A stretch of DNA of 64,000 bases from Malassezia japonica (taxonomy: Eukaryota > Basidiomycota > Malasseziomycetes > Malasseziales > Malasseziaceae): positions 1,054,001 through 1,118,000 of the forward strand of contig NC_083370.1 of NCBI RefSeq assembly GCF_029542785.1, given 5' to 3'. The position numbers and the translations under genes are program-made. Below the pieces are notes generated by a model. The model did no database searches, was not told where the DNA came from, and was given only the letters and a program-made list of their open reading frames with translations. Positions 1,788 to 57,175 of this stretch are shown in pieces. The stretch's first letter is position 1. Every line of letters begins with the position of its first letter.

Positions 1788-4731
1788 ATGGACGCGACGC
1801 CGGCGGCGCTACGGGCGCGCCTCGTGGAGCGTCCGGTCGCAAGCCTCGACGAGCTCAAGTCTATCGTGCTGCCGCCGCTTGCGCTAGTCGGTGCACTGCC
1901 GGAAAAGTACGTAGCGTACCGCGCAGACGCACCGCCGCCCTCGGCACTCGGGGGGTGGTGGGCGACGATGCAGCATGCGCTTCTCACGCATACATTCGTG
2001 ACGTGGGGCGACGCACTCCAAAAGGCGCACTTGTACGATACGATTATCGACGGCTACTTTGTCCCGCAGGAGCCGCGGGTGTGGCTGCACACCCTCGCGA
2101 CGTGCTCCGAGCAGCTCCGCGCAGCGCGCCCGGGCCAGGACGCACGCCTGCACCCGCTTGGGCGTACGGCACTCGTGCACATCCTCGAGCGCTTTGGCCA
2201 AAAGCCGCTTGTGCAAAAAATCCTGCTGGCTGTCGACGCGGAGCGGAGCGCCCCGAAACGCGACCTGGCCTGGACCGACGCCGTGGGCCAGCTGGTCGCG
2301 CTGCCGACGCGCGCCGCCAACGCATTTGAGCACGAGACACCGGCATGTCTAGGAACAAGGTACGGTGTACGGCTTACCCAGCCTCTATCTCGGCCACCTC
2401 GCCCAGGATTGGGAGGCGGCGCTTGCGACGCACGGCAACCCCCAACGCCTGGCCGAGCTCCTGGCGAAGCTCGTGCGCAGCGGGTTTGTTGCGCCGAGTC
2501 CCCACGGCTCGTTTTGGGCATCGATTGGTCCGGCGCTCGTTGCGCGCTGGCAGGACGGTGCATCGGCCCAGATGGCGTTCACGGACGAATATACCCATGC
2601 ATGGCACGGCGTCAGTGCCGAGCTCGGCACGGCGCTGGACGCCGTTCTCTATGCGCTGGCCGCGTACCTCGACCAGCTGCTCACTCGCACACACTGCGCA
2701 TGGCCGCTGGACATGTCGGAGCAAAGCGCCGGGTCTGAAGGCAAGCATTTTCTCTCGGCGGAAGCGACATACGCACGCAGCGCGGCCTACTCTCTTCTCG
2801 AACTCGTCGGCGGCGGAGACGACGACGTGGCAGGCATGGATGCCGTACACATCGGCAGTGCATACCCCGGCACGCTCTGGAGCCCGTTGCTGAGCCTTGC
2901 GCTGGCAGCCTGGACTCCGCACGACGCCTTGCAGGACCTAGTCACGTACTGGGCCAGCGCCGAGCGGTGTGTACGCACGTCGGTCAAACAGGAACAGTCG
3001 CTCACCGCGATGCTCTTGGCGTACACCACGGATGCGTCGGCCAAAGGGGCATGGGAGGCACTGGCGCACAGCCCCCTCTTTCTCGAAGGCGTCTCGCGGC
3101 ACTTGGATCATACCGATGCGACGATCCGGCGTCTCGGCATGCTCGTTGCCGAGCGCGTGAGTCGCATTACCGTCGCTCCGCCGACCAAGCCGCTGTCATT
3201 TCCGAGCAGCGTATGGGACGGCCGTGGCGACGGCCGCGAAGTGTGCCGCGTCCTGCGCGCGCTCGCCGACTCGTTCCAGCTTGGCGAGATCGCGGACGCG
3301 AAGGTCGACGCAGCGGCGTGGACCGACGCGCTGCACTTGCACGAGGAGCCGAAATCGCTTGCGTTGCCGGAATCGGCACCCGCCCGCCCGGCGCCAAAGA
3401 CACGCCGCCTCCCGGAGCGTGTCCCGGCAAAGCCGCCGCCTCGTGCGCCTGCGCGCCCCAAGATTGAAGTGCTCGACGAGACGACAGACGAATTCCATAC
3501 GTATGCGCCGCCGCCGCAGCACGATATGAGCTCTGACGAAGGCGCAGACAGCGAGTCGGACGAGGGCGAGGACGACAAGACGACGCTCGACTCGGCCTTT
3601 ACCAAGCCGCGCCCGGTGCCAGTCTACGTCTACGAGCTCGCGCCGCTTGCGCGCGAGCGCGACGTGTACGCACAAAAGACGCTCCTGAAGCATGCGGAGC
3701 CGCTCCTGCGTCGCAAGACGGGGTGGGGCGCCGAGATTGCCGAGCATGCCGTTGATCTGTGCGTCGCCCTGTGCTCGATGCAGGACACCTACTCATTGCG
3801 TGCCTTTGAGGAGCGGCGCACCGCCGCGCTCGCCGCGCTGTGCATTGCGTGCCCCGACCCTGTGGCCGACTGCCTGTACGAGCAGCTGTTCCTCCCCCAC
3901 TATGCCGTGGCGCAGCGCATCGCGATGCTGCACGCCGTGGCGTACGCGGCACAAGAGCTTGCCGGTCAGCGCACGCCCGAGCACATCAACGTGGCGACGA
4001 CGCGTCTTGCGGACGATGCCGCAATGCATGCACGCGAGGCCGGCGAGCGCCAGACGGCCGCGGCGGACCCCGAGCGCCATGCGGTGCGTGTGCGCCGGCA
4101 CGCGGTGCGCTCTGCACTCGCGCCGGATACGCCGCTCCCCTTTGCGCCCGAAGGCAGTGTGCGCCCGACGGTCGCGTATACCACTGCGGCGCTCCCGGCG
4201 TTCCTCTTTCCCCTGCTGAATCGGTACTGGACGTACTGCCAAGCGCACCGTGGCCAGCGCGTGCTGCGTGCCGGCGGCGACGTGGCGCTCAGTGCGCCGG
4301 TGCTTGGCGCCATTCTCCAGACGCTCGCCGTGCTGTGCTACTATGCGCAAAACGCGCCGCACTTTTACCAGCGCCTCGTCCCCGATGTGCTCGAGTTGGT
4401 AGACGCGGTGCTTGCGACGCCCGACGTCGATGCCCTGGTCGCCGGTGCGGCGCTGTCGCTTGCGCTGATTGTGCTGCAGGCCACGCTGCAAGCCTCGCAA
4501 GGTCTCGACCTTGTGCGAGCGCACGCCCCCCTGCTTGCGCGTCTGCAGCAGGCCGCACAAGGGTGCTTTGCCGCAGAAGAGACACGCGCCGGCCTCGGTG
4601 CCCCCACGCCCGAGGTACTCGCCGCGCCGAGCGCGCGTGCGCGGCGCTGCGCTGCGGCGGTCGTGGTGCAGCTTGCCGAGCTCCAGGACGAGGCGCAAAG
4701 AGCCTTTTTCCATCCTGGTCGCGTTTGGTAG
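1788..4731 (+). CDS. TEL2: Telomere length regulation protein Tel2/TELO2 (TTT complex)
   Basis: Exons 1788-2359 and 2382-4731 give 973 residues. The 22-nt intron (2360-2381; branch CTTAC) joins two frames that are each closed without it. Tel2 is a HEAT-repeat scaffold that, with Tti1 and Tti2, stabilises PIKK kinases (ATM, ATR, TOR) through Hsp90. The conserved TELO2 C-terminal domain is visible from about residue 603 (VYVYELAPLARERDVYAQKT) to about 715. Just before it lies a Ser/Asp/Glu stretch (about 573-592, SSDEGADSESDEGEDD). It resembles the CK2-phosphorylated linker that docks the R2TP co-chaperone in other Tel2 proteins; that role here is inference. Its partner TTI1 is encoded at 42.1-46.0 kb. 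Confidence 0.9.
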
Positions 4732-11865: not shown

Positions 11866-12988
11866 ATGTCGGTCGACATGCAGCAGAATGGCGGCAGCGC
11901 ACAAGCTACCGCAGCCCATGAGGGAGCTGCTGCAAGTGCTGGTCCCCAGCTCGGAGATTCGTATCGTCTGCTGAAGGCTGTGGGCGAAGGTGCCTATGGC
12001 GTCGTCTAGTACGTTTTTCTTCTGACCCAGCTCGGCCATTCATCTGCCGACTTCCACCCGAGTCGCGGTGAAGCGAATCTCGCCGTTCGATCATCAGATG
12101 TTTTGTCTGCGTACGCTGCGCGAGATTCGGCTGCTGCGCCATTTTCACCATGAGAACATCATCTCGATTCTCGACATTCTCAAGCCCGAGTCACTGGAAA
12201 CCTTTACCGAGGTGCACCTGATCCAGGAGCTAATGGAGACGGATATGCACCGTGTGATTCGCACACAGGATCTGTCCAACGACCACTTCCAGTACTTTGT
12301 GTACCAGATCCTGCGTGGCCTCAAGGCACTCCATTCGGCTGGTGTCTTGCACCGTGACCTGAAGCCGAGTAACTTGCTGCTGAACGCCAACTGCGATCTC
12401 AAGATCTGCGACTTTGGCCTGGCGCGCAGTGCCGATCAGCCGGAACCGGATGGCAAGGCATTCCTGACGGAATACGTCGCGACACGCTGGTACCGGGCGC
12501 CGGAAATCATGCTCACCTTTAAGGAGTATACCAAGGCCATCGATCTCTGGTCCGTCGGCTGCATCTTTGCCGAAATGCTTTCTGGCCGTCCCCTATTCCC
12601 TGGTCGCGACTACCACCACCAGCTCTCGCTGATCCTCGAGGTGCTTGGCACACCGTCCCTCGACGATTTCTACGCGATCAGCTCGTTGCGGTCGCGCGAC
12701 TACATTCGCTCGTTGCCTTTTTGCAAGCGCAAAAACTTTGCCGCGCTCTTTCCGCAGGCCGAGCCACTGGCGCTGGATCTGCTCGAGCGTCTCTTGACTT
12801 TTTCGCCTCGTAAGCGCATCACTGTGGAAGAGGCACTGGCACACCCCTACCTCGAACCCTACCACGACCCCAGCGACGAGCCAGGTGCCGAGCCACTCGA
12901 CCCGAGTTTCTTTGATGCGGACTTTTCCAAGGAACCTCTGTCGCGCGCCGAACTGAAGAAACTCATTTACCAGGAGATTACTCGGTAA
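11866..12988 (+). CDS. MAP kinase of the Fus3/Kss1/Kpp2 (ERK) class
   Basis: Exons 11866-12008 and 12031-12988 give 366 residues. The 22-nt intron 12009-12030 splits codon 48 in the ATP-binding region. Landmarks: glycine loop GEGAYG (40-45), VAVK lysine (62), catalytic HRDLKPSN (from 155), DFG (175-177), activation-loop TEY (194-196) and the APE-type RAPEIM. The subfamily follows from the TEY motif and the strong match of [17 protein letters not shown] and [13 protein letters not shown] to pheromone/filamentation kinases. In smut relatives this kinase acts in mating and invasive growth. An alternative ATG at 11878 would remove four residues. Confidence 0.92.
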
Positions 12989-18990: not shown

Positions 18991-20402
18991 CTACGATGAA
19001 GGGCGTGGGGCCGAAGCACTAGCGTGGGGCGTGTATGAAAGCGCGTCGACAAACGACTGCAGCGGAGGGATGAATGAGTCTTGGGACTCCAGCTTAATTT
19101 GCGCTTCGTGTGCTGCCGCCTGAGCAAAAAATGGGTCGTGTACCTCGTACGGGACAGGTGCATGCGCCGATACGGGCGCCAGGAACGTGTCTTGGGTCTC
19201 GTACTTTGCCGAGGTGGATGGAGCCGAGAGTGGCGTCGGTAATGCGCTTTGCACCTCGTACTTGACGGGCGTTGCGCCGGCCAAGATCGAGGCAAGCAGC
19301 GGATTCTGGGCGTCGTACATGTTCGCTGCTTGAGCTGAGACGGGCGTGGCGAGGGGGCTCGAGTCCTCGTACTTGACGGATGATGCTTGAGCTAGCGCCG
19401 GCGTAGGGAATGGACTCTGTGCCTCGCACTTGGCCGATGTCGCTAGTGCTGACATAGGCGCGAGGAACGAGCTGTGTGCGTCACACTGTACCTGCGCCGC
19501 ATGCGCCGACACCGGCGTCGTGGGGTAGGCAGGCGTCGTAGGCGCGCTCCAGCACACGGGCGAAGGCGTCAAGGTCGTTGTAAGGAGGTTCTGCAGCGTC
19601 ATGGCATTCGCATGCTCCGTGACTGGCGTGGTGGGCGTACATGGCCTCTGGAGCTCCTGCACCAGGTTCGCAACGCACAGCGGGCTCGGCATGGGCACAG
19701 GGCGCCGCTGCGCGAGCGAAGGCGCCCAGGATGGTGCATTACTAGCGACCACATCCGGCGTTGTAGGCGGCGTCACGTTAGTGTCGTGGAGCAGGTTGGG
19801 TACCCGAGTACGAGGAGGAGCCTCGTCAAAGCGGCGGGGGGGGACGCGCGTGGCATAAATGACATTGCCCGACAGGTTGCACCGGACAAGCTCTGGCTCG
19901 TGGGCCCCACATTCGTGGCGGCTGCACCCTCGGTCGGCACTTCCCTGGCCGTTGTCCTCGAGGTGGTTGCGTACCTCGTGGATGCGCAGCGTGGCCTTGC
20001 GAGTGTAGTCCTTACCACACCAAGGCTCCTTGCACTTGTACGGCCGCATACCCGCGTGGGTGCGAGTGTGGCGCGACAAGGAGCTCGAGTCGCCAAAGGC
20101 ACGGCTGCACACTCTGCACACGTACGGGCGGAGGCCAGTGTGGCTGTTCATATGCACGCGTAGTGCGCTGCTCTGAATGAAGCGCCGGCGGCAGTTGGGG
20201 AAGCTACACGTATAAGGGCGATCATTGGTGTGACACTGAATGTGACTGTGTGAGTCAGTGTACGTACCGCTTTAGATCCGACCTGCGCGCAAAGCTCTTG
20301 CCGCACGATTCATACGTGCAAGTGTTGGGCTTGGCGATCAGGCGGCAATGCTCGTCAAAGATGTCTGCTATGAGTATAGAGCAACGTACTGAAATCGTCC
20401 AT
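18991..20402 (-). CDS. C2H2 zinc-finger transcription factor with a degenerate repeat tail
   Basis: Exons (minus) 20402-20390, 20364-20268 and 20245-18991 give 454 residues. The first coding exon is 13 nt. Intron 1 (20365-20389, 25 nt) ends AGCAG; using the upstream AG would add one residue. Intron 2 (20246-20267) is 22 nt and falls inside finger 1. Four consecutive C2H2 fingers occupy about residues 20-131: three with C-X4-C spacing (CTYESC, CSFPNC, CKEPWC) and one with C-X2-C (CRVC), joined by TGLRPY/AGMRPY-type linkers. The tail is Thr/Pro-rich, then an imperfect repeat of about 20-24 residues (SAKYExQ.PFLAPVSAxA) runs nearly to the end. It is probably a DNA-binding regulator; its targets are unknown. 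Confidence 0.85.
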
Positions 20403-20527
20403 AAGGAAGGAGCCGGGGTGCGCCCTCGCTTCCCGTAGCGCCCACATCACCCTCGCTTCCTGTGTAACATCGCAATCGCATCATGACATCGTCAGCAAGA
20501 TCCACGTGGGTATGTACAAGAGGGTAG

Positions 20528-21580
20528 CTATGACCACAGACCATACTTGGTACCGGGGTGGGCCTGCCATAGGCGGATCGTGCCGTCCTCGCTGCCACTG
20601 GCCGCCACCTCGCCGTCGGGCGAGTAGCTCACGCAGTGCACCGGACCGTGGTGGCCCTTGCTCAGCTCGAGAACCTCGGCGGTGTTGTAGTCGTATACGC
20701 GCACCCATTCGTCTGCCGTGCTGCCTGCCACGAAGCGGTCGGCTTGCGTGGGGTGCAGGTACACGGACGAGGGGGCGACGTCGAGTGTATGCTTCTTGAC
20801 CACTTCGTGACTTGCCAAATCCACAAACATGGCATCCTTCCCAGCGGTAATCGTGATGTATTCGCCAAATGTACCGGTGCAACGGTCCATCGAGACAAAC
20901 GGCTCGTCGAGCGTCATTTCGTGCACGGGCTCAAGCGTCCGCAGATCCCACCACTGGATCAGCTTGTCTTCTGCAGCCGTCACCACCACATTTTCCGCGC
21001 CATTCGTGCCGCGGCCAAGCACGACACTGCGAATCACACCGTCGTGTGTTGTGCCTTGGTCGTTCGTTTTGAACAGCTGTGCGTCGTCTGCGGAAGTGCC
21101 TGCCTTTTGCAGATCAAATAGACGCAATTTTTTTTCGTGGCCGCCCGTCAGCAGCTGCGTGCCTGCATGGTTCACGGCCACGCTGCGCACAATATGATTG
21201 TGTGAATAGGTCTGCACACACTCCCCAGTATAGGTGTCCCACACCTTTGCCGAGAAGTCAGCACTGCCCGTCACCGCACGCGCCGCGTCTCCACCCGAGA
21301 GCTTGGCACTCCAAACGGCACCCTTGTGGCCTGGGTTAGAAAGAAGACGTACCTAAAAATGTCCCAATCCAGTCACCGAGCCAGTCGCGAAGCCTGCGTT
21401 AGTGTTGGGGCGTACATGGGGTTGCTGTCTTTGCAGCTCGACAACATGAGGTAGGTCCCATCATCCTGCTTCTCCGAGTGCTCCAGATGCACAACAGGAC
21501 GCGTGTGGCCCGGACACGTCAACGGAGCAGTCTACATCAGCCAGAACACCTACCTTTGGACCCGGGGCGTTCGCAGCCAT
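20528..21580 (-). CDS. STRAP: STRAP-like WD40 protein (SMN-complex/unrip family)
   Basis: Exons (minus) 21580-21554, 21531-21416, 21393-21353 and 21330-20528 encode 328 residues, joined by three introns of exactly 22 nt. Phases are 0, 2 and 1, and each splice restores family residues (CPGHTRPV, GDWIGTFLGHKGAVW). WD40 blades run through the whole protein, ending in DGEVAASGSEDGTIRLWQ and a TKYGLW tail, as in animal STRAP/unrip. That protein works with the SMN complex in snRNP assembly and binds receptor kinases; only the WD40 scaffold role can be transferred with confidence. It is divergent from the RAD1 clamp gene, 69 bp away. Confidence 0.9.
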
Positions 21581-21649: not shown

Positions 21650-22687
21650 ATGACGGCGGCGGGCGATGTGCTGCACGCGCGTCTTGCCGACGCGTCGATG
21701 CTCATGGCGCTGCTCAAGGCAGTCAATTTTGCATCGGTATGTCGATGTGCTGACGCAGTTTGCGACCGTGTCCATCTCGGCATCCGGCCTGGAAGTTGTC
21801 TCGGAAATGAACCAGACCGTGCAGGCGCACGCGTACCTCTACGCATCGATCTTTGACGAGTACACCTTTACTCCCCCGGAGAACTGGCACGAATTCGGGC
21901 GTACGCAGGAAGAGAGCGACGAGGAGGAGGACACGCAGCCGTACATCTGCTTCGAAGTGAATGCGTCGACCATTGTCCAGTGCCTTGGCCTGTTTGAGAG
22001 CAGGATGGGCAACGCGACCTCGCGCGAGGGCCTTGCGGACGTCGCGCGCCGGCGGGGGGAGTATGTAGAGATTGTCTACCGCGCAGTTGGTGAGCCGTTG
22101 TGCCTGCGCATGCACACGGGGCGCCTCGAGATGGGATTCCGGCTGCGCACCCTCGACTCGAGCCTCACGCCGAGCCTGCAGTTTTCGCCCGACGACACGG
22201 TGGCCCAGGTCATTATGAAGGTACGTCGCACGGCTCATCCAGTCCGAATGGCTCTCGCGCGCGTTTCAGGAGCTGGACGCAGGCGGCGAGACGCGCGTCC
22301 AGGTCCGTTTCACGCCCAGCAATCCTGCGCGTAGCGGCCAAGGCACGCTCTTGCTGAACACAGAAGGGAGCTATGGAAGCACCGAGATTTCATTTTCGCA
22401 CGAGAGCCAGGTGACGGAAAAGTTTGACTGTGTCGCAGCGGCCGACCACGGTTACCCATTGCAATGCGTCGGGTACATGCTGCAGGCGAGCAAGTCGTCG
22501 ATCAAAACGTCGCTGCGTGTCGATGAGCAGGGAATGCTGAGTGCCCAGTTCATGATCGCAAGCCACCGCGTGCCGGCTGCTGTGCCGCGCACCGCGCCAC
22601 CCCTGTCGGTCGCGTCGTCGGGTCATGCCTTTGTCGAGTTTTTGGTAGGTGTCTCTACTAACGCAGTGCTGTCCGCTGAGCGAATAA
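21650..22687 (+). CDS. rad1: Checkpoint clamp subunit Rad1 (9-1-1 complex)
   Basis: Exons 21650-21736, 21759-22220, 22243-22644 and 22667-22687 give 323 residues. All three introns are 22 nt. The last exon is 21 nt and supplies the conserved end FVEFL-CCPLSE. Sequence through FATVSISASGLEVVSEMNQTVQAHAYL and the PCNA-like second half matches the Rad1/Rec1 family (S. pombe rad1, U. maydis Rec1, S. cerevisiae Rad17), not the XPF-type S. cerevisiae Rad1. The 9-1-1 ring is loaded at resected DNA and activates the ATR checkpoint. Between the two PCNA-like halves is an acidic insert (EESDEEED). The stop lies 12 bp from the stop of the opposing SNARE gene. Confidence 0.88.
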
Positions 22688-22699: not shown

Positions 22700-23631
22700 C
22701 TACTTGAACAGTGCAATGAGTAGGACAAGCACGATAATTAGTACAAAGATGATCCACACCGAGCCTGCGTCAGCCGATCGACGTACCGTGCTCTTTCATG
22801 CTCGCGCGGAAGCGATCGAGGCGGTTGCTTGCCCCCCCCAGCCGCAGCTCGGTATCGTCCACGCCCCGGTCGAGGTCGGTCAGGAGGCCTGCGTGCAGCT
22901 CCAGCTCCTCGTTCATGCGCAGACTCAGATCGTGCTGGCGCGAGATGGAGGTGCTGAGATGGTCGAGATGGGTGTCTTGGTCGCGGAAGGCCGCATTTTG
23001 TAGCGCGAACTGTGCAGCGGCCTCGCGGTCGTCGGGTGCGTACCGTGCCGAGGAATCCTGTTCCGGGAGGTCGTCGACCTGTGTCATGAACTCGACGCGC
23101 GATAGGCGCTCGGCCGGCATCGCCTCCGCCTCCTCCGGCTCAGCCTCTGGCTCGGGCGCGGGCTTGTCGAGCGGCGTGTCGAGACCAAAGACGTGCGGAT
23201 GCCTGTGTGAGAAGACCAACGTACAATGATCGCAAGTCCTGCACGATCTCTGTCCCCCGCGGGTCGTTCAGCTCGTTGTTCGTCTGGCCCAGCAGGTGGA
23301 CCAAGCGGTGGACGGTGCCGGTCCAGTCGCCGAGCTGCTCCGGTGTCGGTACGTCGTCGTCCTGCATCAGGTCGCCCCGTGCATGCACCGCATTCCACGC
23401 ATCCAGCGCATCCATGAGCGTATGCAGGTTCTTGGCGATCGTCTTGTCGCGCGCAAAGTACGGAAAGGTACGGAGAAAGGCATGATCGCTCGCCTCGGCA
23501 GACGATGCAATCTCGTGCGCAAGACGAATACGCTCTTGCAACACTGCGAATGTAGACGCACACAGCGACTGGAATCGCGGCGCCGCATCTCGTGCGCCGT
23601 ACGCCGCGAGCCCGCGACGTTCCGCGTCCAT
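22700..23631 (-). CDS. SYN8: Qc-SNARE of the syntaxin-8 type, tail-anchored
   Basis: Exons (minus) 23631-23225, 23202-22787 and 22764-22700 encode 295 residues, with two 22-nt introns. The SNARE heptad region [29 protein letters not shown] and the following helix lie near residues 205-265. The final exon gives one membrane segment ([17 protein letters not shown]) ending in Lys, so it is a tail anchor. Only by removing the last intron does the SNARE helix connect to this anchor. The N-terminal 130 residues are helical, as in the family. Syntaxin-8/Syn8 acts in endosome-vacuole fusion; the subclass is assigned from the overall layout and is less certain than the SNARE call. The start is 34 bp downstream of the RAD51 stop. 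Confidence 0.8.
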
Positions 23632-23665: not shown

Positions 23666-24761
23666 CTACTCGTCCTGGGGTTAGGCGCGCGACGTACGGG
23701 ATCGGCGATGCCCTCGGGCTTGATCGCAAACACCGCGTCTGCTTCGGGGAGCGACGGAGAGTCGACTACGCGGCAGATGCGCTGATTTCCGCGGCCCTTG
23801 CGCAGCGAGAGACTGGGTCAGGGGAAGGACGTACCGCGTCGTGGAGGCGTGGGCAACAATGTTGCCGCCAATCGGCTTCTTGGTCTCCATACCACCGCCA
23901 AAGCCGGCATTGTCGACCTGTGCGACGACCTGGTTGGTGATCACGACCGCGACGCCAAACTCGTCCGCGAGGCGCAGCAACGTGCGCAGGAACTTGGCCA
24001 GGTGCGTCTGGCGCGCCGACAGCTCGCCACGGCCCGAAAAGTCGGTGCGATAGAGCGAAGTTAGCGAGTCGACAATCAAGAGCGCGAAGCGCGACTCGGC
24101 CATCATGGCTGCCGCCTGGACAAGCAGCTCGAGCTGGTGGTCGGCGTTGTACGCACGCGCATACGCGACATTGTCGAGCACCTCTTCGCCGTCAAGGCCG
24201 AAGCGCTCGGCCACAGCCAGGAGACGCACCGGGCGAAAGGTGCCTTCAGTATCAATGTACAGGCACTTGCCCTCGCCGCCGCCCATGTCGATCGGGAGCT
24301 GACAGGTGACGGCGAGCGTGTGGCAGATCTGGCTCTTGCCGGTACGGAACTCGCCAAAGAGCTCGGTGATGCTGCCCGTCTCCATGCCGCCGCCAATGAC
24401 CAGGTCCAGCGCAGGGGAGCCTGTGGTGATGGTAATCAGGTCCGAGCGGCGCTGGTGGTACTCGGTCGCGGTGGTGAAGCCAAGCGGCACGAGCTTAGCG
24501 GCCTCGCTCAGAATCTTGTCGACCTTTTGCTCCGACATGCCCTTGATCGTGAGCAGCGTCTTCTTCGGCGTAAACGCGAGACTCTCGAGCGTGTGGAAGC
24601 CGGCCTCTTTGAGTTTCTTGCAGTCCGATGCCGAGATACCGAATTCCTGCGTAAGCCATGCAACATACCTCCATCTTGCTGATCGGCAAGGGCCCCATCA
24701 CCTCTTCAGGAAGCGCGTCCATCTCGTTCGGCACGCCCGCGTGCTCCATCGCGTCGGCCAT
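23666..24761 (-). CDS. RAD51: Recombinase Rad51
   Basis: Exons (minus) 24761-24669, 24646-23835, 23812-23698 and 23674-23666 give 342 residues. Introns are 22, 22 and 23 nt, and the last coding exon is 9 nt (Asp-Glu-stop), completing the usual acidic EGIADP-DE end. Walker A GEFRTGKS, Walker B LLIVDS, the [10 protein letters not shown] segment and the C-terminal [19 protein letters not shown] are all present. An N-terminal HhH region ([16 protein letters not shown]) distinguishes it from bacterial RecA. Rad51 rather than meiotic Dmc1 is supported by [15 protein letters not shown]. It forms the presynaptic filament in homologous recombination. It is divergent from a transporter gene, with a CACGTG box and a CCAAT motif between them. 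Confidence 0.95.
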
Positions 24762-24866: not shown

Positions 24867-26272
24867 ATGCCAGAGGCCAGTGCAGATCGACGCCGCGGCG
24901 CGGTGGCCTTGGGCGACGATGGCGAGGAAGATCAAGGCTCGGCTACGATGCTTTCGAGCATCAGTGGCCTGACCAATACGATTATCGGCGCGGGCATGCT
25001 CGCGCTGCCGCACGCATACGCCAAGATGGGCTGGCTCCAGGGCTCGCTCTTGGTCGTGCTTTGTGCGGTGGTGACCAACTTTGGTCTCTACCTAATCAAG
25101 CTATGCGCGGACCGTATGGACAAGCGCGTGAACAGCTTTTACGATATGACGAGCCAAGTGATGCCGTCGGCCGTGTGGTACTTTGACGCGACGATCTTTG
25201 TCAAGGTAAGTGGCATGGCTCACCCAGTGCTTTGGCGTCGGTGTCTCGTACTTAATGATTAGCGGGAACCTCATACCGCAGGTCATCCTGAGCCTTGCGC
25301 GCGCGCTGGGAGTTGGTACCAAGAGCGTCCCGAGCTGGCTCCTGAGCACGCCGCTGTGGATTCTTGTGTGTCTCACGCTGATGGGTACGTCGCTTGTCTG
25401 ACACAGCGCCGGCATGCTTCTACCGCAAGCTGGACTCGCTCCGGATTATCGGTTACCTGAACATGGGCGCGGTTGCCTACCTCTTGCTCATCCTGTTCTA
25501 CTACTTTGTGAACAGCTCGGCGGCGCACCTGCCGTCGCACGGCGAAATGGACGCGGTGCTCGTCTCGACCGATGTCCTGCGCACTTTCCCGATCATGGTG
25601 TTTGCATACACCTGTGCGCAGAACATCCTGCCGGTGTACAACGAGCTGCAACACAGCACCGTGGAGCGCTCGACGCTCGTTACAGTCATCTCAGTCGGCG
25701 CCAGTGCGCTCGTTTACCTTGTCGTGGCGCTCGTGGGCTACGCCACCTTCGGCTCAAACGTGAGCGACAACATCATCGCCATGTACCCCGACACGAATCT
25801 CTTTGTGTGCTTCGGCAAGCTGTCGGTCATTGCGCTGACGCTCACGAGCTATCCGATGCAGCTCTATCCTTGCCGCGCTAGCCTCCTCAACATGCTCGAG
25901 GTGAACGTCGACGTGCTCTCGGCCACCGAGGCCGAGCAGTCGATGCTCGGTGCCAGCAGCGGCGAGATGGACCCGGTGCTCCACCGCGAGATCGGCGAGC
26001 GGCGCTGGACTGTGCTGACGCTTGCGCTGATGAGCGCCGGCCTGTTTATCAGCATGCTGGTCAACGACCTGTCCGTGGTGCTCGGCATTGTCGGCTCGGT
26101 CGGCAGCACAACGATCAGCTTTATCCTGCCGGCACTGCTCTATCGCTCCATCTTCCGAGAGGATGCCAAGTCCCCGCTATACACGGCTGCGACGGCGCTG
26201 GGCGTGTGGGGTGCCATTGTGCTCGTCCTGGCGCTCACGGTGAACATCTCGAAAATCTTCCAAGGTTTGTAA
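24867..26272 (+). CDS. Vacuolar amino-acid transporter of the AVT/SLC38 (AAAP) family
   Basis: Exons 24867-25205, 25228-25384 and 25407-26272 encode 453 residues, with two 22-nt introns. About eleven hydrophobic segments are seen. The first carries the family signature SSISGLTNTIIGAGMLALPHAYAKMGW, and a later one FAYTCAQNILPVYNEL. The short acidic N-terminus is cytosolic in this family. Members such as yeast Avt5-Avt7 move amino acids out of the vacuole by proton coupling; the exact paralogue and substrate cannot be read from sequence. The stop is 11 bp from the stop of the opposing APA2. Confidence 0.87.
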
Positions 26273-35904: not shown

Positions 35905-36487
35905 ATGGCGCATGTCCCTCGGCAGTCGGTGTATTTTAGTGCCAATGCCAGCGTGAATCAGCTCAATAGCATTCAGGCGTGCATTGGAAGCGTCCAGGAT
36001 GCATGCGGCACGGTACGCTTACCGGCTCACAGCAGATCGCCGCGACGAACCACGTCCTTCAGCACCATACAGGCGACTTTGACCGCCTGCGCACCGCGAT
36101 GGCGAGTCAAAGGGTACGTATCTTTGCTAATCGAAGCACTTTGATCTTGTCTCTGAGCACGATGTGCGTGAGGCGCGCGAGCACGTCGCTGGCGAAATTG
36201 CGCCGCTCCTCCGTGAGCTGATTGTGCGCGCGGAGAATGCGCTCACCGAAGACGAGCGGCACGCGCGTGCGCTGCGGAACAAGGCCACCGAAGAGCTTGC
36301 GCAGGTCGAGGCTCGCTCGTCGCATTCCGTGCTGGGCGACACGACCAAGTCGCCGTCGGTCGCCGCGCTAGTGAACCAAGCGGAGCTCGACGAGCACCGG
36401 CGGGCGCTCGAAAAGCTCAAGGCGGAGCGCAAGCGGCTGATGGAGCGTGTGTCTGCACTGGAGCAACGCCAGGGCACAAGTGCATAG
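35905..36487 (+). CDS. SPC19: DASH/Dam1 complex subunit Spc19
   Basis: Exons 35905-36012, 36036-36113 and 36137-36487 encode 178 residues (yeast Spc19 has 165). Both introns are 23 nt. Intron 1 ends CTCAC-AG-CAG, a tandem acceptor whose alternative would add one Gln in frame; intron 2 uses an AAG acceptor. The N-terminal part (ANASVNQLNSIQACIGSVQDAC) is a helical dimerisation segment. The middle HFDLVSEHDVREAREHVAGEIAPLLRELI matches the FxLVPE/SE block of the family, and the C-terminus is coiled coil. The DASH ring couples kinetochores to microtubule ends. The stop is 13 bp from the opposing FAHD1 stop. Confidence 0.8.
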
Positions 36488-36500: not shown

Positions 36501-37294
36501 CTACTCGCGGAACGTAAAGCCACCGGCGCGGTCCTTGACCTGGAGCTGGAGCTCGGCAAGGATCTTGGACGAGCCAGGGAGCTGCAGACCAGCGTCGATC
36601 TTCTGACCGGCCTTGACCTGTCCGACGCCCTTGGGCGTGCCTGCGTAAGAAACTAGACGTACCTGTCAGGAGCAAGTCGCCCGCTTCGAGCGTCATGATC
36701 GACGAGACGTGCTCAAGTAGCTGGGGAATGTTGAAGATCATGTCGCTCGTGTTTCCATTCTGCTTCGTCTCGCCGTCGACCTTGAGCCAGAGGTCAACGT
36801 CGTTCGGGTCGGGGATCTGGTCCTTGCCGATAAACGCGCTAGGTGAGTCATACGACGTACCTCACAGGCGTAAAAGTGTCGAAGCCCTTGGCGGCCGACC
36901 ACGGCAGGCCTTGCTTCTTCACCTTGTCCTGCAAGTTGCGCGCTGTCATGTCGATCGCCAACGCTGCGTTAGGGGGTGCACGTACCGTAGCCGCCAATGT
37001 AGTCCTTCGCGTTGTTCGCAGCGATATCGCGGCCTTTTTGGCCGATAACCACGCCGAGCTCGACTGCATTAGGCGCACTGCGTACCTTCAAAGTGCGCCA
37101 CGATCCCCTTGGGGATCTCGATCGCATCGCCCGTGCCAATGTAGCTCGACGTCGGCTTCAAGAAGAAGAAGGGCTCGGTGGGCACGGCATTGTTGAGCTC
37201 CTTGGCATGGTCAGCAAAGTTACGGCCGATTCTACGTGAGCGGCACGACCTACGCAACAATCTTGCGGCCCGTCGTCCGGAAAGAAGAGAGCAT
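36501..37294 (-). CDS. FAHD1: FAHD1-like fumarylacetoacetate hydrolase family protein (acylpyruvase/oxaloacetate decarboxylase)
   Basis: Six exons (minus): 37294-37254, 37231-37086, 37063-36986, 36963-36861, 36838-36663 and 36640-36501, giving 227 residues, the family length. All five introns are exactly 22 nt with the same layout. Motifs are IGRNFADHAKEL, EPFFFLKPTSSYIGTGD, the metal-ligand segment HFEVELGVVIG, WSAAKGFDTFTPVSAFI and the active-site GDLLLTGTPKGVG. FAHD1 enzymes are mitochondrial, Mg2+-dependent acylpyruvate hydrolases and oxaloacetate decarboxylases. A basic N-terminus (MLSSFRTTGRKI) may direct it there. Oxaloacetate decarboxylation yields pyruvate, and the neighbouring gene is a pyruvate carrier; this link is only suggestive. 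Confidence 0.9.
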
Positions 37295-37338
37295 CGTAGG
37301 GAAGAAGCACGGTGCACCAAGCGCAACGCCGCTACCTC

Positions 37339-37533: not shown

Positions 37534-37958
37534 CTAGTTCTTTTTCGCGTCCGGCGATGCGTCGACAGCCTGTGCCTCGGGGTGCGTGAAACGGTAGCTG
37601 CATTAGACACCCATACGTACTGTGCAATACGTCCGAGCTGGACCAGGCCATTGACGCCGACAAAGAAGTTGACAGCCGCAAGGGGGTAGTTGACGGGAGT
37701 GATCACGAAACAGTAACTGCATTAGCGTATCAGACATACCGGACCCAGATCATGCCCGTCGCAGCGAGCGCCGCATTCTGGGGCACGGACAGCTTCTCCG
37801 CCGGGCGCGAAAGGTCGCCGATACCCGCAAGCACCATACCCCACTTCATCATCGGCGCCCAGAAAAAGACTGCATAAGTACAGATACATACCCGTCTTGG
37901 GCCCCGCAGGGTGGTTCCAAAACGCACTGAAACGGCTGCTCGCGCCTGCCGCTGCCAT
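37534..37958 (-). CDS. MPC2: Mitochondrial pyruvate carrier subunit (MPC2 type)
   Basis: Exons (minus) 37958-37892, 37869-37740, 37716-37621 and 37597-37534 encode 118 residues. Introns are 22, 23 and 23 nt. The chain FWNHPAGPKTVFFWAPMMKWG, the DLSRPAEKLS loop, GMIWVRYCFVITPVNYPLAAVNF and GVNGLVQLGRIAHYR follow the MPC2/Mpc2 consensus closely, with about three membrane segments. It pairs with MPC1 in the inner membrane to import pyruvate. The first ATG of the frame is used; earlier in-frame codons lack an ATG. It is divergent from FIP1 by 117 bp. Confidence 0.93.
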
Positions 37959-38075: not shown

Positions 38076-39541
38076 ATGGACGACGACGAGGCGTTCCTGT
38101 ACGGGAACGACACGCCCGCTGCGCCTGTTGCGCCGGTGGCCGAGCCTAGCGCGCCGGAATCGGCGCCCACACCCCAGCCTGCGGCGCCGGCCGCGGCCGA
38201 TGAGGAGGAGGACGAGGGGATGGAAGACAGCGACGAATCGGTGCGTGTGCCGCTCTAACGCAGGATATTGAGTTCATTATCGATCCCAATGCACCCGCCG
38301 TACCCCCGCCGCGCTCTGCAACCTATGCACCGACGCAGCCGCAGTCGAGCCCTAGCAAGGCGGCCGACGCGCCGGCTGCGGCGCCGGTTGCACCAGCGCC
38401 TGCCGAGCCAGTGCCGGTGCCCAGTACGCCTGCCCCTGCCACGGAGCCGATCGCGCCAAAGCCCGTGCCTGTGGCCGCGCCTGTGCCTGTGCAGTCTACC
38501 GCAGACCTTCCGCCCGAAGGGCCTGCCGTGCCCGCCGCATCGACCGCGCCTGAACTCAACTTGGAGCCGAGCGCGTCTGCTTTGCAATACCCGCCCACCG
38601 AGCCGGTATACGACGCGGTACCCGGCCAGGACCAAAACCCTCTGACTATATACCAAGTCGACATTGACTCTCTGCCAGAAAAACCGTGGCGTCGGCCTGG
38701 CGCAAACATGAGCGACTGGTTCAACTACGGCTTTGACGAGACGACCTGGGCCATGTGGTGTGCGCAAAAGAACCGCATGGACCAGACGCGCACCGATTTC
38801 ACTACAATCCTCAAGGACGGTGCGCCAGATGCCAGCGCGGACGCGCCCTACGCGCCGCCTGACGTGCAAGACGATGCCCAGAACCCCATGGCGAACCTCA
38901 CCGCGATGTTTGCGCCGGGCATGATGGGCATGCCCGGCATGCAGTGGCCAATGATGCAAGGCATGATGCCCGGTGCACCTGATGCGCCCGACGCGATGGG
39001 CATGATGGGCATGCCTCCCCAAGGCGAAGGCGACGCGGCGAATATGCCGAGCGGGTGGACCGGCGGCCATCCCCTTCCCCCCGCGCCCCAATTTGCGCAG
39101 GAAGATGCGCGGGGGACCGATAGCGACAGCCGCGACGCACACGGCCGCTCGCGCCGCGACCGCGGGCCCCGCTCGGGGTCACGACGCGACCGTCGGCGCC
39201 ACGACGACCGCTCCGAGGAGGATGATGCGTACGCGCCTGAGCACCATCCGAGTGCCCCTCGCCGCGACCGGTATAGTGACCGGGATGCCGAGGCGCTTGA
39301 CTACGGCTCGCACGCCCCCCACGACGACGATCGCCGGCACCGTCGTTCGCCGGCACGTCACGACGACGACCGGCACCACGACGACGCGCCGCGCGGCTCG
39401 CGTGACCGCCCTAGCCGCCGCGAACGCGACCGCCATCGCTCCGACCGTCGCGCAGGCCGTGGCGGCCAGAAACGCGGCGCGCCAGAAGGCGACGACCACG
39501 GCGATTACGCCGCGAAGCGCTTCCACGGCGGCCGTCCATAG
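38076..39541 (+). CDS. FIP1: Polyadenylation factor Fip1
   Basis: Exons 38076-38240 and 38264-39541 encode 480 residues. The 23-nt intron starts GTGCGT and has a CTAAC branch. An acidic N-terminus (DEEEDEGMEDSDES) and a Pro/Ala-rich stretch precede the Fip1 motif KPWRRPGANMSDWFNYGFDE (about residues 205-225). A Met/Gly/Pro-rich stretch and a long Arg/Asp/His-rich tail with RS/RD/RE dipeptides follow, as in animal rather than yeast Fip1. Fip1 tethers poly(A) polymerase to the cleavage factor through CPSF30/Yth1 and Pap1. The stop codon is only 21 bp before the RAD16 start on the same strand. Confidence 0.93.
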
Positions 39542-46013: not shown

Positions 46014-47354
46014 ATGTCGAACGTGGAAATTGCCGAGGATGAGGCGTCGGCCAACATGGCCATGATATCGAATGAGGTACGTTGCGCGACTAACGCAGGA
46101 ATACAAAAGTAGGTCGCTTTCACTTACCCAGTATGGAAGAAGAACTCGCCCTTCCTGTACGACATGGTCGTTACGCACGCGCTCGAGTGGCCGACGTTGA
46201 CCATGCAGTGGTTCCCGGACAAGGAGGTGTTTGCGGGCAAAGGCTTTGCGCGGCACCGCATGCTGCTCGGCACGCACACGTCCGGGCAAGACAACAACTA
46301 CCTCCAGATCGCCACGGCGAATCTCCCCCTGACCGAGAGCGACGCGGGCGGCGCCGATGCCAAGGTCGAGATGAAGGACTACGACGAGGAAAAAGGCGAG
46401 ATTGGATCGTACTCCTCGACCTCGACTCGCATCCAGATTACGCAGCGCATCAACCACGAAGGCGAGGTGAACCGCGCGCGGTACTGCCCCCAGAACTGCG
46501 ACCTGATCGCGACGCGTGCCGTGAGCGGCCTGACCTATGTGTTTGACCGGACGAAGCACAGCAACCAGCCGGACAGCGACGGCAAGTGCCGTCCGGACAT
46601 TACGCTCCGTGGCCAGACCCAGGAGGGCTACGGTCTGGCGTGGAACCCCATTCGCCAAGGGCATATTCTGGCCGCTTCTGAGGACACGACCGTGTGTCAC
46701 TGGGACATTAATGCATACCAGAAAGAGACGGCGACACTCGAGCCGCTCAAGGTGTACCGGGGCCACTCGTCTATCGTCGAGGACGTCGCGTGGCACAACC
46801 ACCACGAGCACCTCTTTGCCTCGGTCGGCGACGACCGCCAGATGCTTCTGTGGGACACGCGCGAGTCGGGCGAGTCGCCCAAGCAGCGTGTCGAGGCGCA
46901 CACGAGCGAGGTGAATGCCGTGTCGTTCAGCCCCGCGAGCGAGTACATCCTCGCGACCGGCTCCAGCGACAAGACGGTCGCGCTGTGGGATCTGCGGAAC
47001 CTCGGCGTGCGTCTGCACTCGCTCGAGGCGCACACCGACGAGGTGCTGCAGCTTGCCTGGTCGCCGCATCACGAGACGGTCCTTGCGTCTGCCTCGGCGG
47101 ACCGCCGTGTGAACATCTGGGACCTGAGCCGCATCGGCGAGGAGCAGACCTCGGAGGACGCCGAGGACGGTCCGGCGGAGCTGCTGTTTGTGCACGGCGG
47201 CCACACGAGCCGGCCGACGGACATGGCCTGGTCGCCGCAGGACCCGTGGAAGGTGGCTACCGCGGCGGAGGACAATATCGTGATGGTCTGGCAGCCCGCC
47301 GCGTCCATCGTCGAGCCCGCCGAGGGCGACGTGGATGCTGCGGAACTCGAGTAG
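46014..47354 (+). CDS. RbAp46/48-type WD40 histone-binding protein (Hat2/Msi1 family)
   Basis: Exons 46014-46076, 46099-46108 and 46132-47354 encode 431 residues. Introns are 22 and 23 nt and enclose a 10-nt exon. Only with this exon does the highly conserved [25 protein letters not shown] segment form. Seven WD40 blades follow, with NHEGEVNRARYCPQN and the acidic loop EEQTSEDAEDGPAELLFVHGGHTSRPTDMAW characteristic of RBBP4/7. These proteins escort H3-H4 in chromatin assembly (CAF-1), acetylation (Hat1) and deacetylase complexes. Which of the Hat2 and Msi1 roles it has cannot be decided from sequence. Confidence 0.92.
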
Positions 47355-47385
47355 GTCGTAGATACGCACCTCCACTCTCGCCACC

Positions 47386-48394
47386 ATGGCGTTTATGGGC
47401 CTGACGGGCAACCGTCGCGAGCTGTGCGTAGCATACCTAACGCAGGCGACCGAATGCGCGGCATGCATTTACCGGACTTCTGGTTTTGTTTAGTATCCTC
47501 GTGCCCCCGCTCGCTGTTGCGATGCGCTTCGGAATTGGCATGGACTTTTTTGTGAACGTCATTTTGACCATCCTGGGGTACATTCCGGGGCACTTGCACA
47601 ACTTCTTTATCCAGCGCGTACGCGATAACTCGAACAAGCAGCGCACTCCGTCGTGGCTGCTCAAGTACGGGCTGGTAGTCAACCCCCGCAACACGCGCGG
47701 AAACACGACCAAGTGGGCGGACCGCTATCTGTACGTCCCGGAGCTCGTGCAGCACGACGAGGAGGGTCGTGCCTACTACCTGAACCCCGAGACGGACGAG
47801 TTTGATGCGCCGGCTGCGCCGCGCTTTGGGCCGCGCGTGCCGGAGGAGGAGGAAGAGGTCGTGCAAAACGGCAGCGAGCTCATCGAGCCCGATCGCTACT
47901 TTGCGTCGAAAAAGCCCTCGTCGTACTACAACCAGGACGTCCCGACGGCCGCAGGAAGCAGCGACGCATGGCATGCACCGCCCAAGTCGTTCAAAGCGCG
48001 CACGCTCAAGCTGTTCGGCGGGGGCGCGAGCAGCGCGCCGTCGATGGACCGCCATTCGCGCATCGATCACGCGATGGGCGACCCGGTGCACCAGCGCCGC
48101 AACAACATCGGGTACCATACGTACGACGACCAGGAGGAATCGGTCGACGAGCCCTACACGCGCCCCAACACTAAGCAATCTACCGCGCCGACGGACACAC
48201 TCGACGAGCTCGACCGCGAGCTGATGGGCCTCTCGACGCAGGAGCAGATGCCGCCGGTGCGTGCGAGCCGCCAGGCGGGCTCGGGCGCGTACAAACCCCG
48301 CGCGCGTGCGCCGCCCCCCGCCGAGGAGCGTAGCAGCGCGGCACGGACCGAGGCCCCGGTGCGCGACGTGATGGAGTTCGAGCACACCTTTTAG
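47386..48394 (+). CDS. PMP3/UPF0057-domain membrane protein with a long cytosolic tail
   Basis: Exons 47386-47423 and 47446-48394 encode 328 residues; the 22-nt intron has a CTAAC branch. The ATG context is CCACCATGG. The first 65 residues contain the Pmp3 module: LLVLFSILVPPLAVAMRFG, then FFVNVILTILGYIPGHLHNFFIQ. Pmp3-like proteins are usually about 55-140 residues; here some 260 hydrophilic residues follow. They include NTTKWADRYLYVPELVQHDEEGRAYYLNPETDEFD, an acidic run and a Ser/Pro/Arg-rich end. The Pmp3 family affects plasma-membrane potential and vacuolar sorting (Sna proteins). It starts 31 bp after the RbAp48-type gene stop on the same strand. Confidence 0.85.
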
Positions 48395-50135: not shown

Positions 50136-50762
50136 ATGTCCATGCAGGTGGGATTGCGCGCCGCGGCGGCGCTCAAGCCGCGTGCTCTCGGCGTGCGCAC
50201 GCTCGCTACGTCGAATGGAAAAGAGTACCTTCCGTGGGAAACATGTACGTCCTTTTTTTTTGCTCATCAAGACCTGCGCCTGCGCAACCAGCGCCGCATC
50301 GCCGGCCTCGTTTCGACGGTGCCTGCCATGATTCTCGCAGGCGCCGCATCGGGATCCTACTTTTTGACGCAGGAGCTCGACCCGAGTCAGACGATCATGG
50401 GGGTACGTCGCCGCACTCACGCAGATCGACCCCCTGTTTGTGCACATCGGCGCGACGCTCGCCTGCACGGGCCTCGGCTGGCTCATCGGGCCGTCGGTCG
50501 GCACGGCGGTTTGGTCGCTGATGCACCGCAGCAAGGCCGCACAGATCGCGCAGCGTGACCATGAGTTCTACCAGCACATCCGCCGTATGCGCGTCGATCC
50601 GACGCGCCAGGTGGTGCACAACCCCGTGCCGGACTACTATGGCGAAAAGATCGGCTCGATCAAGCAATACCGCCAGTGGCTCCGTGATCAGGTATGTTGA
50701 AGTACTAATGGGTATAGGGAATATACCGGCGCAAGGCTTCGCACGGCCTCGAGGACCAGTAG
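50136..50762 (+). CDS. PAM17: Mitochondrial import motor subunit Pam17
   Basis: Exons 50136-50244, 50272-50402, 50425-50691 and 50718-50762 encode 183 residues. Introns are 27 nt (nine-T run, AAG acceptor), 22 nt and 26 nt. A basic mitochondrial presequence (MSMQVGLRAAAALKPRALG) precedes LPWETYLRLRNQRRIAGLV and two membrane segments with the family signature DPLFVHIGATLACTGLGWL / IGPSVGTAVW. Pam17 organises the presequence translocase-associated motor on the matrix side of TIM23. Its TAG ends at 50762 and the stop of the opposing CWC23 begins at 50763, so the two coding regions touch. Confidence 0.92.
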
Positions 50763-53204: not shown

Positions 53205-53213
53205 TCTACCTGT

Positions 53214-54319: not shown

Positions 54320-57175
54320 ATGCGGTTGATAGTGTCGTACTGCGGGCGTGAAATCGAGGTGAAACAGACGCTATGGCAGTTCCAAACGTACGTCGTGCAT
54401 CTCATTCAGTTTTGATCATTTTCTGGACTGCGTGTCGCTCGCGACCGGAATCCTCTACGACTCCATTATCTGCATCACCAAGCAGGGTGTCCAGGTCAAT
54501 GAGGATGTGATGGACGAGCTGCTCCAACAAAAGCTCCATACTGACTTTGTAGGTATTGTTGCTCACAGCAGGAGTTTTACGTGTACGACCGCGAGCTACT
54601 GTACGCGGATGTCGACGCGATCGTGCCCCAGCTGGAAATGGAGCTCGAGCCGCGGATCAGTGTGCCGCCGCCGGTGCTGCCGATGCCGCCTACGCCGCGC
54701 TCACTAGATGTACTGGTTGCGTGGGCGCGCGACGCGCAGCTCGCGAGCGAGGCACGGCATGCCTCGGCGGTCGAATTACATACATGCATCGAACGCATCC
54801 ACGCAAGTACCTGCGTCGGCCTCGCCAATCTCCAGTCGCACACGGATGGGATCAAGAACGCAGTGAACAAGCTCGAAGAGATTGCCTCGCGAGAGCTCGC
54901 ATCGATGGAGGACCTGCTCAAACGCCACGAGCTCGACCTCTACGTCTTGTCGCGCATCGTCATTCACCCGAAACTCCTTGGCAAGGCGCCCGAGGAAAGC
55001 GAGACGCGTCAGCGAACACTCGGCGACTATGTGAGCGCCACCAAGATGCGCATGGTCGCTGAAGTCTGCGGCAAGGAGCTCGAGCAGCTGCAGGAACGCT
55101 ACGCCGCGACGCTCCAGACCGAGTTTCACCTCTCGGTCGACTTGGCAGACCTCGTGTCCGAGGTCGAGCAGACGCACCTCGGGCCCTCGACCGAGACGCT
55201 AACGCAGATCCAGGGCACGTACCCTCGCCTGCTGGAGGCGGTACACAAGATCGAGGCACAGTGCCTGCCCGACGACAATGGATGGCCGGTCGCCGACAAA
55301 CTTTCGGCAGACGACGTGGCGCAGTTGAATACGATGGCCAAGGGCGTAAGCGACGATGAGGCAACAATTGTACAGAGCCTCGAGTGCCTCACCTCGGATC
55401 GCAACGAACTGGTGCACCGCCATTTGAACTTGGTCCAGGACATTAGCAGTCTGCAGAGCGACTATGCGGAGCTCGGCGCAGCGCTCGCCGAGATCGACGC
55501 TGCGTTCAGTTCACCGAAGCTCGATGGATTCAAGCACCTGACGCGCCTCAAAAAGATGCTGTGGGCGTACGGCGCGTCGCTCATTGAGGGCGTGCGCCGC
55601 AGCGAGTTTACACGCCTCTTTATGGACAAGGCCCAGCGCCTCGCCGAGCTCATGGCCCAGTTCTCCGAGGCGGAGCTCATGCGGAGGAAGGAGCATGCAG
55701 TGCACGTCATGGCACAGCTGCCGTGGGAAGTGGTCATCGACACGCATCCCCCGGCGCTCGACATTTCGACCAAGCGGCGCGAGACGCGGTCGACGCATAC
55801 GTTTGACCGCGAGGATATCACGAGCTTCTTCCAGCAGCTCGACGCACTGGACGCTGAGATCAGCGACGCAGACCCAAGCAGGTCTTGGAGTCCAGTGAGC
55901 GAGGTGCGCTACGAGCTCCAGCAGCTCGCAGACCGCCTCGACCACGCACAAGACACCTTTACAACCATTGCGCGTCGCGAGTTGCAGCTCGACGACGACG
56001 ACGTGACAGAGGACGGCTCGGAAAAGAGCGGTGCCCCCCCATCGCCCCATCGGTCGCAGCGCGATGACGAGGCGCTTCGCCGCCAGCTGGTCTTGGCACA
56101 CGAGCGCACCCAGCGCCTGGAGGCGGAGCTCGCGCGCCGCACTGCCGAATGGAGCGACGAGCGCCAGGCGCTGCAGCTCGCGGCCGATACGGCGCAGTCG
56201 CGCCTCGAGGCGAGCGTGCGCAGCGACCTTGCGCAGTCGATCAACGATCCCGTCGCGGCGCAGCTCGCGCGCCTGGGCGAGCGCATGCGGACCTTGCAGG
56301 TGAACGGCGATGCAAAAGACGTCGAGCGGCTGCGCACGGACCTTGCGAATGCACAGGCGCAGCTGGGCCAGGGATCGAGTCTATGGCAAGACGTGCGCCC
56401 GTTGGTCGCACGCACCAAAGCGCTCCATGCCTATGCGCGCGCGCCCGACGCGCTCAACCTCGCCGACCTCCCCCAGGAGGTGGACGATGCCGAGATGAGC
56501 GAGGCCGAGACGCTCGCGGCGCTACGCACGCTCGATGTGCCCCAGTTTTATACCGAAATGTACAGCCGTCTGGAATGGCTCGTCGCCCATGCGCGCCGCT
56601 GGCAAAAGTCGAGCCGGAGCACGCAGGAAAAGTACAATGTCCTCGCGGCCGCCGCACGCGAGAAGCTGTCTGTCGCCCACTTTGCCCCAGGGTGCCTTGC
56701 CCTGTTTCTTCCCACGCGCTTTTCCAATAACTACTGGGCTGCATTCAACGTGGGCGATCCCAACTACTACGTTCGCCCCACCGACAGCCTCGCACAGTAC
56801 ATGGCCAAACACGAGTGGCTCGTCGCGCGCATCACCTCGGTCGAGACGTGTGTTGCGCAGCCTGGCAACGAGTGCATGAGTGCAGGTACGACCTACTATC
56901 TGCTCGACATTGAAGGTTACGAAGACCCTGCGGTGCTCCTGCGCTCCCCCGGCCCGGTGCGCCGCGTCTCGGACCCTTTTCACGGCGCCGCACGGACGTC
57001 GCGCAGCAGCAGCCTGAGCGGCAGCGCTGCGCCATGGCAGCCACGCGCCGACGCGCCTCAGCTTGCGCTCACCGTCGATGGCAGCGCACAAAAACTCGCG
57101 ACGCCCCGGGTGCCGAGCACTGCGACCCAGGCCCTGACGCGTATCCAGCGTGCCAGCAGCAGCGCAACGCCCTGA
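54320..57175 (+). CDS. ATG11: Selective-autophagy scaffold Atg11
   Basis: Exons 54320-54387, 54410-54548 and 54572-57175 encode 936 residues. Introns are 22 and 23 nt; the second ends CTCAC-AG-CAG, so a one-residue variant is possible. The N-terminus (MRLIVSYCGREIEVKQTLWQFQTF) is a ubiquitin-like strand arrangement usual for Atg11/FIP200. Long coiled coils fill residues 70-640, and the C-terminal claw domain is seen in FLPTRFSNNYWAAFNVGDPNYYVRPTDSLAQYM and TSVETCVAQPGNECMSAGTTYYLLDIEGY. Atg11 links cargo receptors to Atg1 and Atg9 for pexophagy and mitophagy. A Ser/Arg-rich tail follows the claw. Confidence 0.9.

What the first reader, a model, noticed from the sequence alone, without database searches (positions are those of the whole stretch)
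1788..54571. A genome run on 22-nucleotide introns with an almost fixed 13+5+4 layout
Seen: from frame continuity and family fit I placed 54 introns in 22 genes. Thirty are exactly 22 nt and ten are 23 nt. Nearly all 22-nt introns read GTACGT-like start (13 nt in all), CTNA(C/T), then NNAG (usually NCAG). The presumed branch A is position 17, only 5 nt before the intron end. The 23-nt ones add one base on either side (14+5+4 or 13+5+5). Known: fungal introns are generally above about 40 nt and branch-to-acceptor spacing is usually 10 nt or more; comparable sizes are known from ciliates and nucleomorphs. Inference: these may approach a physical lower limit for the spliceosome, with no room for a polypyrimidine tract or standard U2AF binding. 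I know of no description of such a fixed architecture in a fungus, but cannot search.
Basis: partly seen in the sequence, partly recalled or inferred. Interest (0 to 1): 0.9.

Follow-up and report, generated by a model that had tools for sequence, protein, structure and literature searches.

The report
Skin fungus with fixed 22-nucleotide introns
A skin yeast interrupts its genes with introns mostly trimmed to one minimal length and layout, and the protein that normally reads the end of an intron has lost much of its RNA-reading face, so the yeast is a natural test of how small an intron can become.

Summary
The window is from Malassezia japonica (two proteins match its GenBank entries at 100%). 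Genome-wide, GTACGT...CTNAY..AG occurs 2183 times at 22 nt, 247 at 23 nt (14+5+4) and 0 at 21 nt (12+5+4); reversed-pattern controls give 2-3. A coding-only model without splice motifs and with flat lengths put 30 of 106 introns at 22 nt, next 5 at 23. Spacing is one-sided: at least 13 nt before the branch motif, 4 after. Twelve of 12 assessable junctions in four genes splice to gapless homologous protein. It is no universal spliceosome limit: 15-17 nt introns are published elsewhere, and 'very short introns' are already noted for Malassezia. New here: U2AF65, SF1, Slu7 and Prp18 are present, but in the Malassezia clade the U2AF65 RRM1 aromatics that stack on RNA are degraded (full triad 0 of 18, against 78 of 83 elsewhere). 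I infer that U2AF65 is now mainly a scaffold and the intron is read as one composite element. No RNA data; three Malassezia papers could not be read.

The parts
2360..2381 (+). 22-nt intron, gene 1788-4731
   Evidence: gene model, pattern
12009..12030 (+). 22-nt intron-like element, not placed in a gene model
   Evidence: pattern only
20246..20267 (-). 22-nt intron, zinc-finger-like gene (by eye)
21331..21352 (-). 22-nt intron, WD40 gene
21394..21415 (-). 22-nt intron, WD40 gene
21532..21553 (-). 22-nt intron, WD40 gene
21737..21758 (+). 22-nt intron, gene 21650-22687
22221..22242 (+). 22-nt intron, gene 21650-22687
22645..22666 (+). 22-nt intron, gene 21650-22687
22765..22786 (-). 22-nt intron, gene with a membrane-anchor-like end (SNARE-like by eye)
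23203..23224 (-). 22-nt intron, same gene
23813..23834 (-). 22-nt intron, RAD51 gene
   Evidence: junction after residue 301.67 is gapless against a RAD51 chain
24647..24668 (-). 22-nt intron, RAD51 gene
   Evidence: junction after residue 31 gapless
25206..25227 (+). 22-nt intron, transporter-like gene (by eye)
25385..25406 (+). 22-nt intron, transporter-like gene (by eye)
26424..26446 (-). 23-nt intron (14+5+4)
26774..26795 (-). 22-nt intron
27045..27066 (-). 22-nt intron
27116..27137 (-). 22-nt intron
28668..28689 (+). 22-nt intron
31026..31047 (+). 22-nt intron-like element, not placed in a gene model
   Evidence: pattern only
36114..36136 (+). 23-nt intron (13+5+5)
36501..37294 (-). acylpyruvate hydrolase (FAHD1-like) gene with five 22-nt introns
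   Evidence: spliced product 100% identical to the GenBank M. japonica protein; aligned to FAHD1
36641..36662 (-). 22-nt intron
36839..36860 (-). 22-nt intron
36964..36985 (-). 22-nt intron
37064..37085 (-). 22-nt intron
37232..37253 (-). 22-nt intron
37598..37620 (-). 23-nt intron, MPC2 gene
37717..37739 (-). 23-nt intron, MPC2 gene
37870..37891 (-). 22-nt intron, MPC2 gene
38241..38263 (+). 23-nt intron
46077..46098 (+). 22-nt intron, RBBP4-like gene
46109..46131 (+). 23-nt intron, RBBP4-like gene, after a 10-nt exon
47424..47445 (+). 22-nt intron-like element; the model merged it into a 95-nt intron
   Evidence: pattern; model
50403..50424 (+). 22-nt intron
54388..54409 (+). 22-nt intron
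54549..54571 (+). 23-nt intron (13+5+5); the model ended it at 54568
   Evidence: sequence read, gene

Best explanation
These are ordinary U2-type GT-AG spliceosomal introns of Malassezia japonica, worn down to a lineage-specific minimum and held in fixed register. Shown from sequence: a 5' site GT(A)NGT, a wall of 13 nt before the branch motif, CTNAY with the presumed branch A at position 17, and a wall of 4 nt (NNAG) after it. Tails run only upward from both walls, as expected if deletion pressure pushes introns against a functional floor. Shown: U2 and U6 snRNA genes keep canonical recognition sequences, and U2AF65, SF1, Slu7 and Prp18 genes are present. Shown: in the Malassezia clade U2AF65 keeps RRM fold-core residues, the tryptophan recalled to bind U2AF35 and its UHM R-x-F motif, but the aromatics of RRM1 that stack on RNA have drifted. 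Inferred mechanism: SF1 KH, then U2 snRNA, reads CTNAY; U2AF35 (not searched for here) reads the AG two nucleotides later; U2AF65 bridges them through its UHM and tryptophan without reading a polypyrimidine tract, for which there is no room between branch point and AG. The intron is then recognised as one composite 22-nt element. The 13-nt 5' wall is set by the need to seat both the U6/5'-site helix and the U2/branch helix on one short strand.
For: Genome-wide counts at 21/22/23 nt; joint spacing table against the reversed pattern, 106/0 at 13+5+4, 1/1 one base shorter on the 5' side, 2/0 one shorter on the 3' side; motif-free coding model; learned model; 12 of 12 assessable junctions gapless in homologues, 9 of 22 nt and 3 of 23 nt (positions); identical GenBank protein; U2 and U6; U2AF65; SF1; Prp18 and Slu7; RRM1 aromatic loss beside conserved fold-core sites; the predicted model keeps the RRM1 strand-helix order, local pLDDT about 78-94, and the first 16 Foldseek matches are human U2AF65 RRM1-2 entries.
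Against: No RNA-seq, lariat or peptide data were available. The U2AF65 change is one lineage (18 sequences, one clade, 6 of them named Malassezia), so its link to intron size is a correlation of one, and I have not seen the introns of the other members. The drift is wider than the RNA face: of 79 sites conserved elsewhere in residues 150-339, 20 are kept in at most 4 of 18, 10 of 33 in RRM1 and 8 of 38 in RRM2. Two RRM2 contacts stay aromatic in 18 of 18, so some RNA binding is likely. The U2AF65 hit is under the family's own cut-off (224.4 against 310.3 bits); its identity rests. Foldseek TM-scores are low (0.40-0.51 by target, first 16 rows), probably since the two-domain arrangement differs. 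U1 was not found by Rfam or by a pattern. Slu7 and Prp18, which I recall as dispensable in yeast for very short branch-to-AG distances, are present.
Confidence: 0.8

Rival explanations
1. The 22-nt elements are a recently spread mobile element (an introner) of fixed size, not shrunken old introns.
For: Uniform size and shared ends across a whole genome are what a copying element would give.
Against: Among 100 listed introns none is identical to another, and matches over the 7 free bases follow the column frequencies (7 matches: 1 observed, 2.5 expected; 6: 39 against 34.7). The same architecture continues upward as 23, 24, 25 nt.
Confidence: 0.03
2. 22 nt is an optimum, not a wall: selection prefers exactly this length, for example because 3n+1 introns always shift the frame and retained ones are destroyed.
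For: 22 is 3n+1, and 139 of 204 model introns are 3n+1.
Against: 19 nt (0 of 204) and 25 nt (3 of 204) are 3n+1 too; 23 (20) and 24 (8) decline smoothly; the 12+5+4 form of 21 nt is absent genome-wide, and the one 21-nt model intron has no branch motif. An optimum should have two tails.
Confidence: 0.12
3. The RRM1 change is unrelated to intron length: a relaxed, fast-evolving protein in a fast-evolving lineage.
For: The stem branch of the clade is long (0.53), and 20 of 79 sites conserved elsewhere are kept in at most 4 of 18, not only RNA-facing ones.
Against: Fold-core sites beside the lost aromatics stay fixed (A206, F210, R211: 18 of 18), 40 of 79 conserved sites are kept in at least 16 of 18, and UHM R and F (18 of 18) and W (17 of 18) are kept.
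Confidence: 0.4

Closest known systems
Stentor coeruleus 15-16 nt introns (PMC9505925, passages)
   Same: Near-fixed length; five nucleotides follow the branch A (A10 of 15, here A17 of 22); all snRNAs reported, U2AF1 and U2AF2 listed.
   Different: Ciliate; branch A at position 10 rather than 17; no strong branch consensus, here CTNAY in 114 of 117.
Mikrocytid 16-17 nt introns (PMC10245619, abstract and passages)
   Same: 217 of 224 introns at one length; that paper proposes deletion pressure against a functional floor.
   Different: Rhizarian parasite with 17-19 spliceosomal proteins found; here 4 of 5 families searched are present and strict hits number over two thousand.
Yarrowia, Trichomonas and Giardia 3' intron structure (PMC2483917, passages)
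   Same: Branch motif anchored at a fixed distance from AG; 2 nt in Yarrowia, as here; no polypyrimidine tract.
   Different: Yarrowia introns are long (median 204 nt, 719 studied); only the 3' end is fixed.
Encephalitozoon cuniculi introns (PMC3629993, passage)
   Same: Shortest introns also 22 nt; strict motifs.
   Different: 37 introns spread over 22-76 nt, reduced spliceosome; here one length dominates.
Human short introns that use SPF45 instead of U2AF (PMC8363638, abstract)
   Same: Short introns with truncated polypyrimidine tract bypass U2AF reading.
   Different: Model intron of 56 nt; a second protein replaces U2AF65, while here U2AF65 itself appears changed. SPF45 was not searched for.

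Membership tests
U2-type GT-AG spliceosomal introns | GT...AG ends with a branch motif complementary to U2 | tested here: met
   GT-AG by construction of the model; CTNAY at 14-18 in 114 of 117 22-nt introns, and in 12 of 12 printed ones of the model that used no motif
U2-type GT-AG spliceosomal introns | U2 and U6 snRNAs with canonical recognition boxes in the genome | tested here: met
   GUAGUA and ACAGAGA present
U2-type GT-AG spliceosomal introns | U1 snRNA in the genome | tested here: inconclusive
   not found by Rfam model (no control rang) or by a pattern of my own
U2-type GT-AG spliceosomal introns | Removed from mRNA | not testable with these tools
   no RNA-seq; indirect: spliced product equals the GenBank protein and homologues are gapless at 12 of 12 assessable junctions in four of five genes tried
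Ultra-short fixed-length introns (Stentor, mikrocytids, nucleomorphs) | Most introns within 1-2 nt of one length under about 30 nt | tested here: met
   22-24 nt: 145 of 204 model introns, 22 nt alone 117
Ultra-short fixed-length introns (Stentor, mikrocytids, nucleomorphs) | Sharp lower bound | tested here: met
   0 at 21 nt (12+5+4) against 2183 at 22 nt genome-wide; 5 of 204 model introns under 22 nt, four without a branch motif and one a 23-nt intron cut short
Reduced spliceosome of microsporidia and mikrocytids | Loss of many splicing factors | tested here: not met
   only 5 protein families were searched: U2AF65 (under the family cut-off, confirmed), SF1, Prp18, Slu7 found; RED_N not found, inconclusive since no control rang
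Fixed branch-to-AG class (Yarrowia type) | Branch motif at one distance from AG | tested here: met
   in the k=7 row 106 at 2 nt, 9 at 3 nt, 2 at 1 nt, control 0 at each
Fixed branch-to-AG class (Yarrowia type) | Intron-poor genome | tested here: inconclusive
   84 of 134 modelled genes carry introns, merging errors included; but a fungal survey counts M. sympodialis among intron-poor species (PMC8476143, passages), and M. restricta is given 2,150 introns in 27% of genes (PMC9241646)
Introner elements | Near-identical copies at many sites | tested here: not met
   no identical pair in 100; spacer matches as expected by chance
Poly-U reading U2AF65 | RRM1 RNP aromatics present | tested here: not met
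   full triad 0 of 18 in the Malassezia clade, 78 of 83 elsewhere; 11 fragments without the region set aside

The most novel reading that the evidence does not exclude
Malassezia has evolved a form of 3' splice-site recognition in which U2AF65 no longer reads RNA through RRM1 but serves as a strut between branch-point reading and AG reading, so that a whole intron is recognised as one 22-nt element with two walls: a 3' wall (five nucleotides after the branch A) shared with Yarrowia and Stentor and perhaps set by the second catalytic step, and a 5' wall that is lineage-specific and set by assembly. At the wall even the spacer is constrained: +8 is G in 59 of 100 22-nt introns but 22 of 100 23-nt ones.
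Probability: 0.32. Interest if true: 0.85.

Novelty: new variant of a known kind. Interest (0 to 1): 0.7.

Why it matters
In human extract the 5' site and branch point must be about 50 nt apart for efficient assembly (PMC6692369, passages); here the presumed branch A is the 17th nucleotide in over two thousand strict matches, in a basidiomycete yeast that has the four splicing proteins found here. That makes the minimum distances of the spliceosome measurable one base at a time, in a genus for which a transformation system is reported (PMC5654937, start of the abstract in the listing). The RRM1 change may be a natural separation of U2AF65's scaffold role from its RNA-reading role. It also means that gene finders with common default minimum intron lengths may misread many Malassezia genes; the M. 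restricta annotators lowered theirs to 15 (PMC6473144, passage).

Tried and rejected
Rejected: chance, introner copies, loss of U2AF65, loss of Slu7 or Prp18 as the price of a 2-nt branch-to-AG gap (both present), and compensatory change in U6 or U2 for the unusual C at +4 (both canonical). Five of 204 model introns are under 22 nt (12, 16, 20, 20, 21): one of the 20-nt ones is a 23-nt intron cut short (54549-54571), the other four show no CTNAY. Of the 31 model introns above 60 nt I looked at a few in the window (20368-20541, 23569-23697, 47351-47445), which seem to lie between separate genes; the others were not examined.

Led nowhere: U1 by Rfam and by pattern. RED_N search found nothing, but no control rang either. 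The WD40 gene at about 20542-21580 gave only repeat-wise matches in what was shown, so its three junctions were left out of the homology count. Rfam and tRNA scans of the window were empty. The SF1 locus was first read in the wrong orientation and redone, where the model left SF1 in two unjoined pieces. A complementarity of the +7 to +9 spacer bases with U6 was considered by eye and does not fit.

Literature: ten searches showed no description of a 22-nt fixed architecture in Malassezia or of its U2AF65; several lists were capped (for example 30 of 412 papers, 15 of 711), I saw titles and starts of abstracts, and read passages, abstracts or an outline of 13 papers, none whole. Not held and so unread: Zhu 2017 on M. 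sympodialis proteogenomics, a DOI recalled for Gioti 2013, a DOI recalled for Coelho 2023, Lee 2010 on a microsporidian, and one preprint DOI tried from memory. Any of the first three may already report these introns.

Full report
What it is. The window lies at bases 1054001-1118000 of contig 1 in an 8.43-Mb, nine-contig genome. So the organism is M. japonica, a basidiomycete yeast (Malasseziomycetes), and its public annotation must already splice out five 22-nt introns in that gene.

Noticed in passing
window 36501-37958: The acylpyruvate hydrolase and MPC2 genes are neighbours on one strand; in M. cuniculi and Malassezia sp. CBS 17886 the annotated protein carries both domains (PF01557+PF03650, P0122 and P0127), either a real fusion or a gene-merging error.
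   Followed up: no
22-nt introns, positions +7 to +9: CGY is preferred in 22-nt introns (29 of 100) and less in 23-nt ones (9 of 100); +8 G 59 against 22 of 100.
   Followed up: partly
5' splice site position +4: C in 71% of 117 22-nt introns, which should mismatch the usual (recalled) U6 ACAGAGA and U1 pairing, yet U6 is canonical.
   Followed up: partly
window 46077-46131: A 10-nt exon lies between a 22-nt and a 23-nt intron in the RBBP4-like gene.
   Followed up: no
window 6392-6942: A gene that reads like eIF5A by eye has two introns of 34 nt, one directly after its start codon.
   Followed up: no
G000: U1 snRNA was not found with Rfam RF00003 or a pattern; it may be diverged.
   Followed up: partly
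window 28001-36000: G+C dips to 0.55-0.58 and the model leaves 30.8-34.0 kb without a gene.
   Followed up: no
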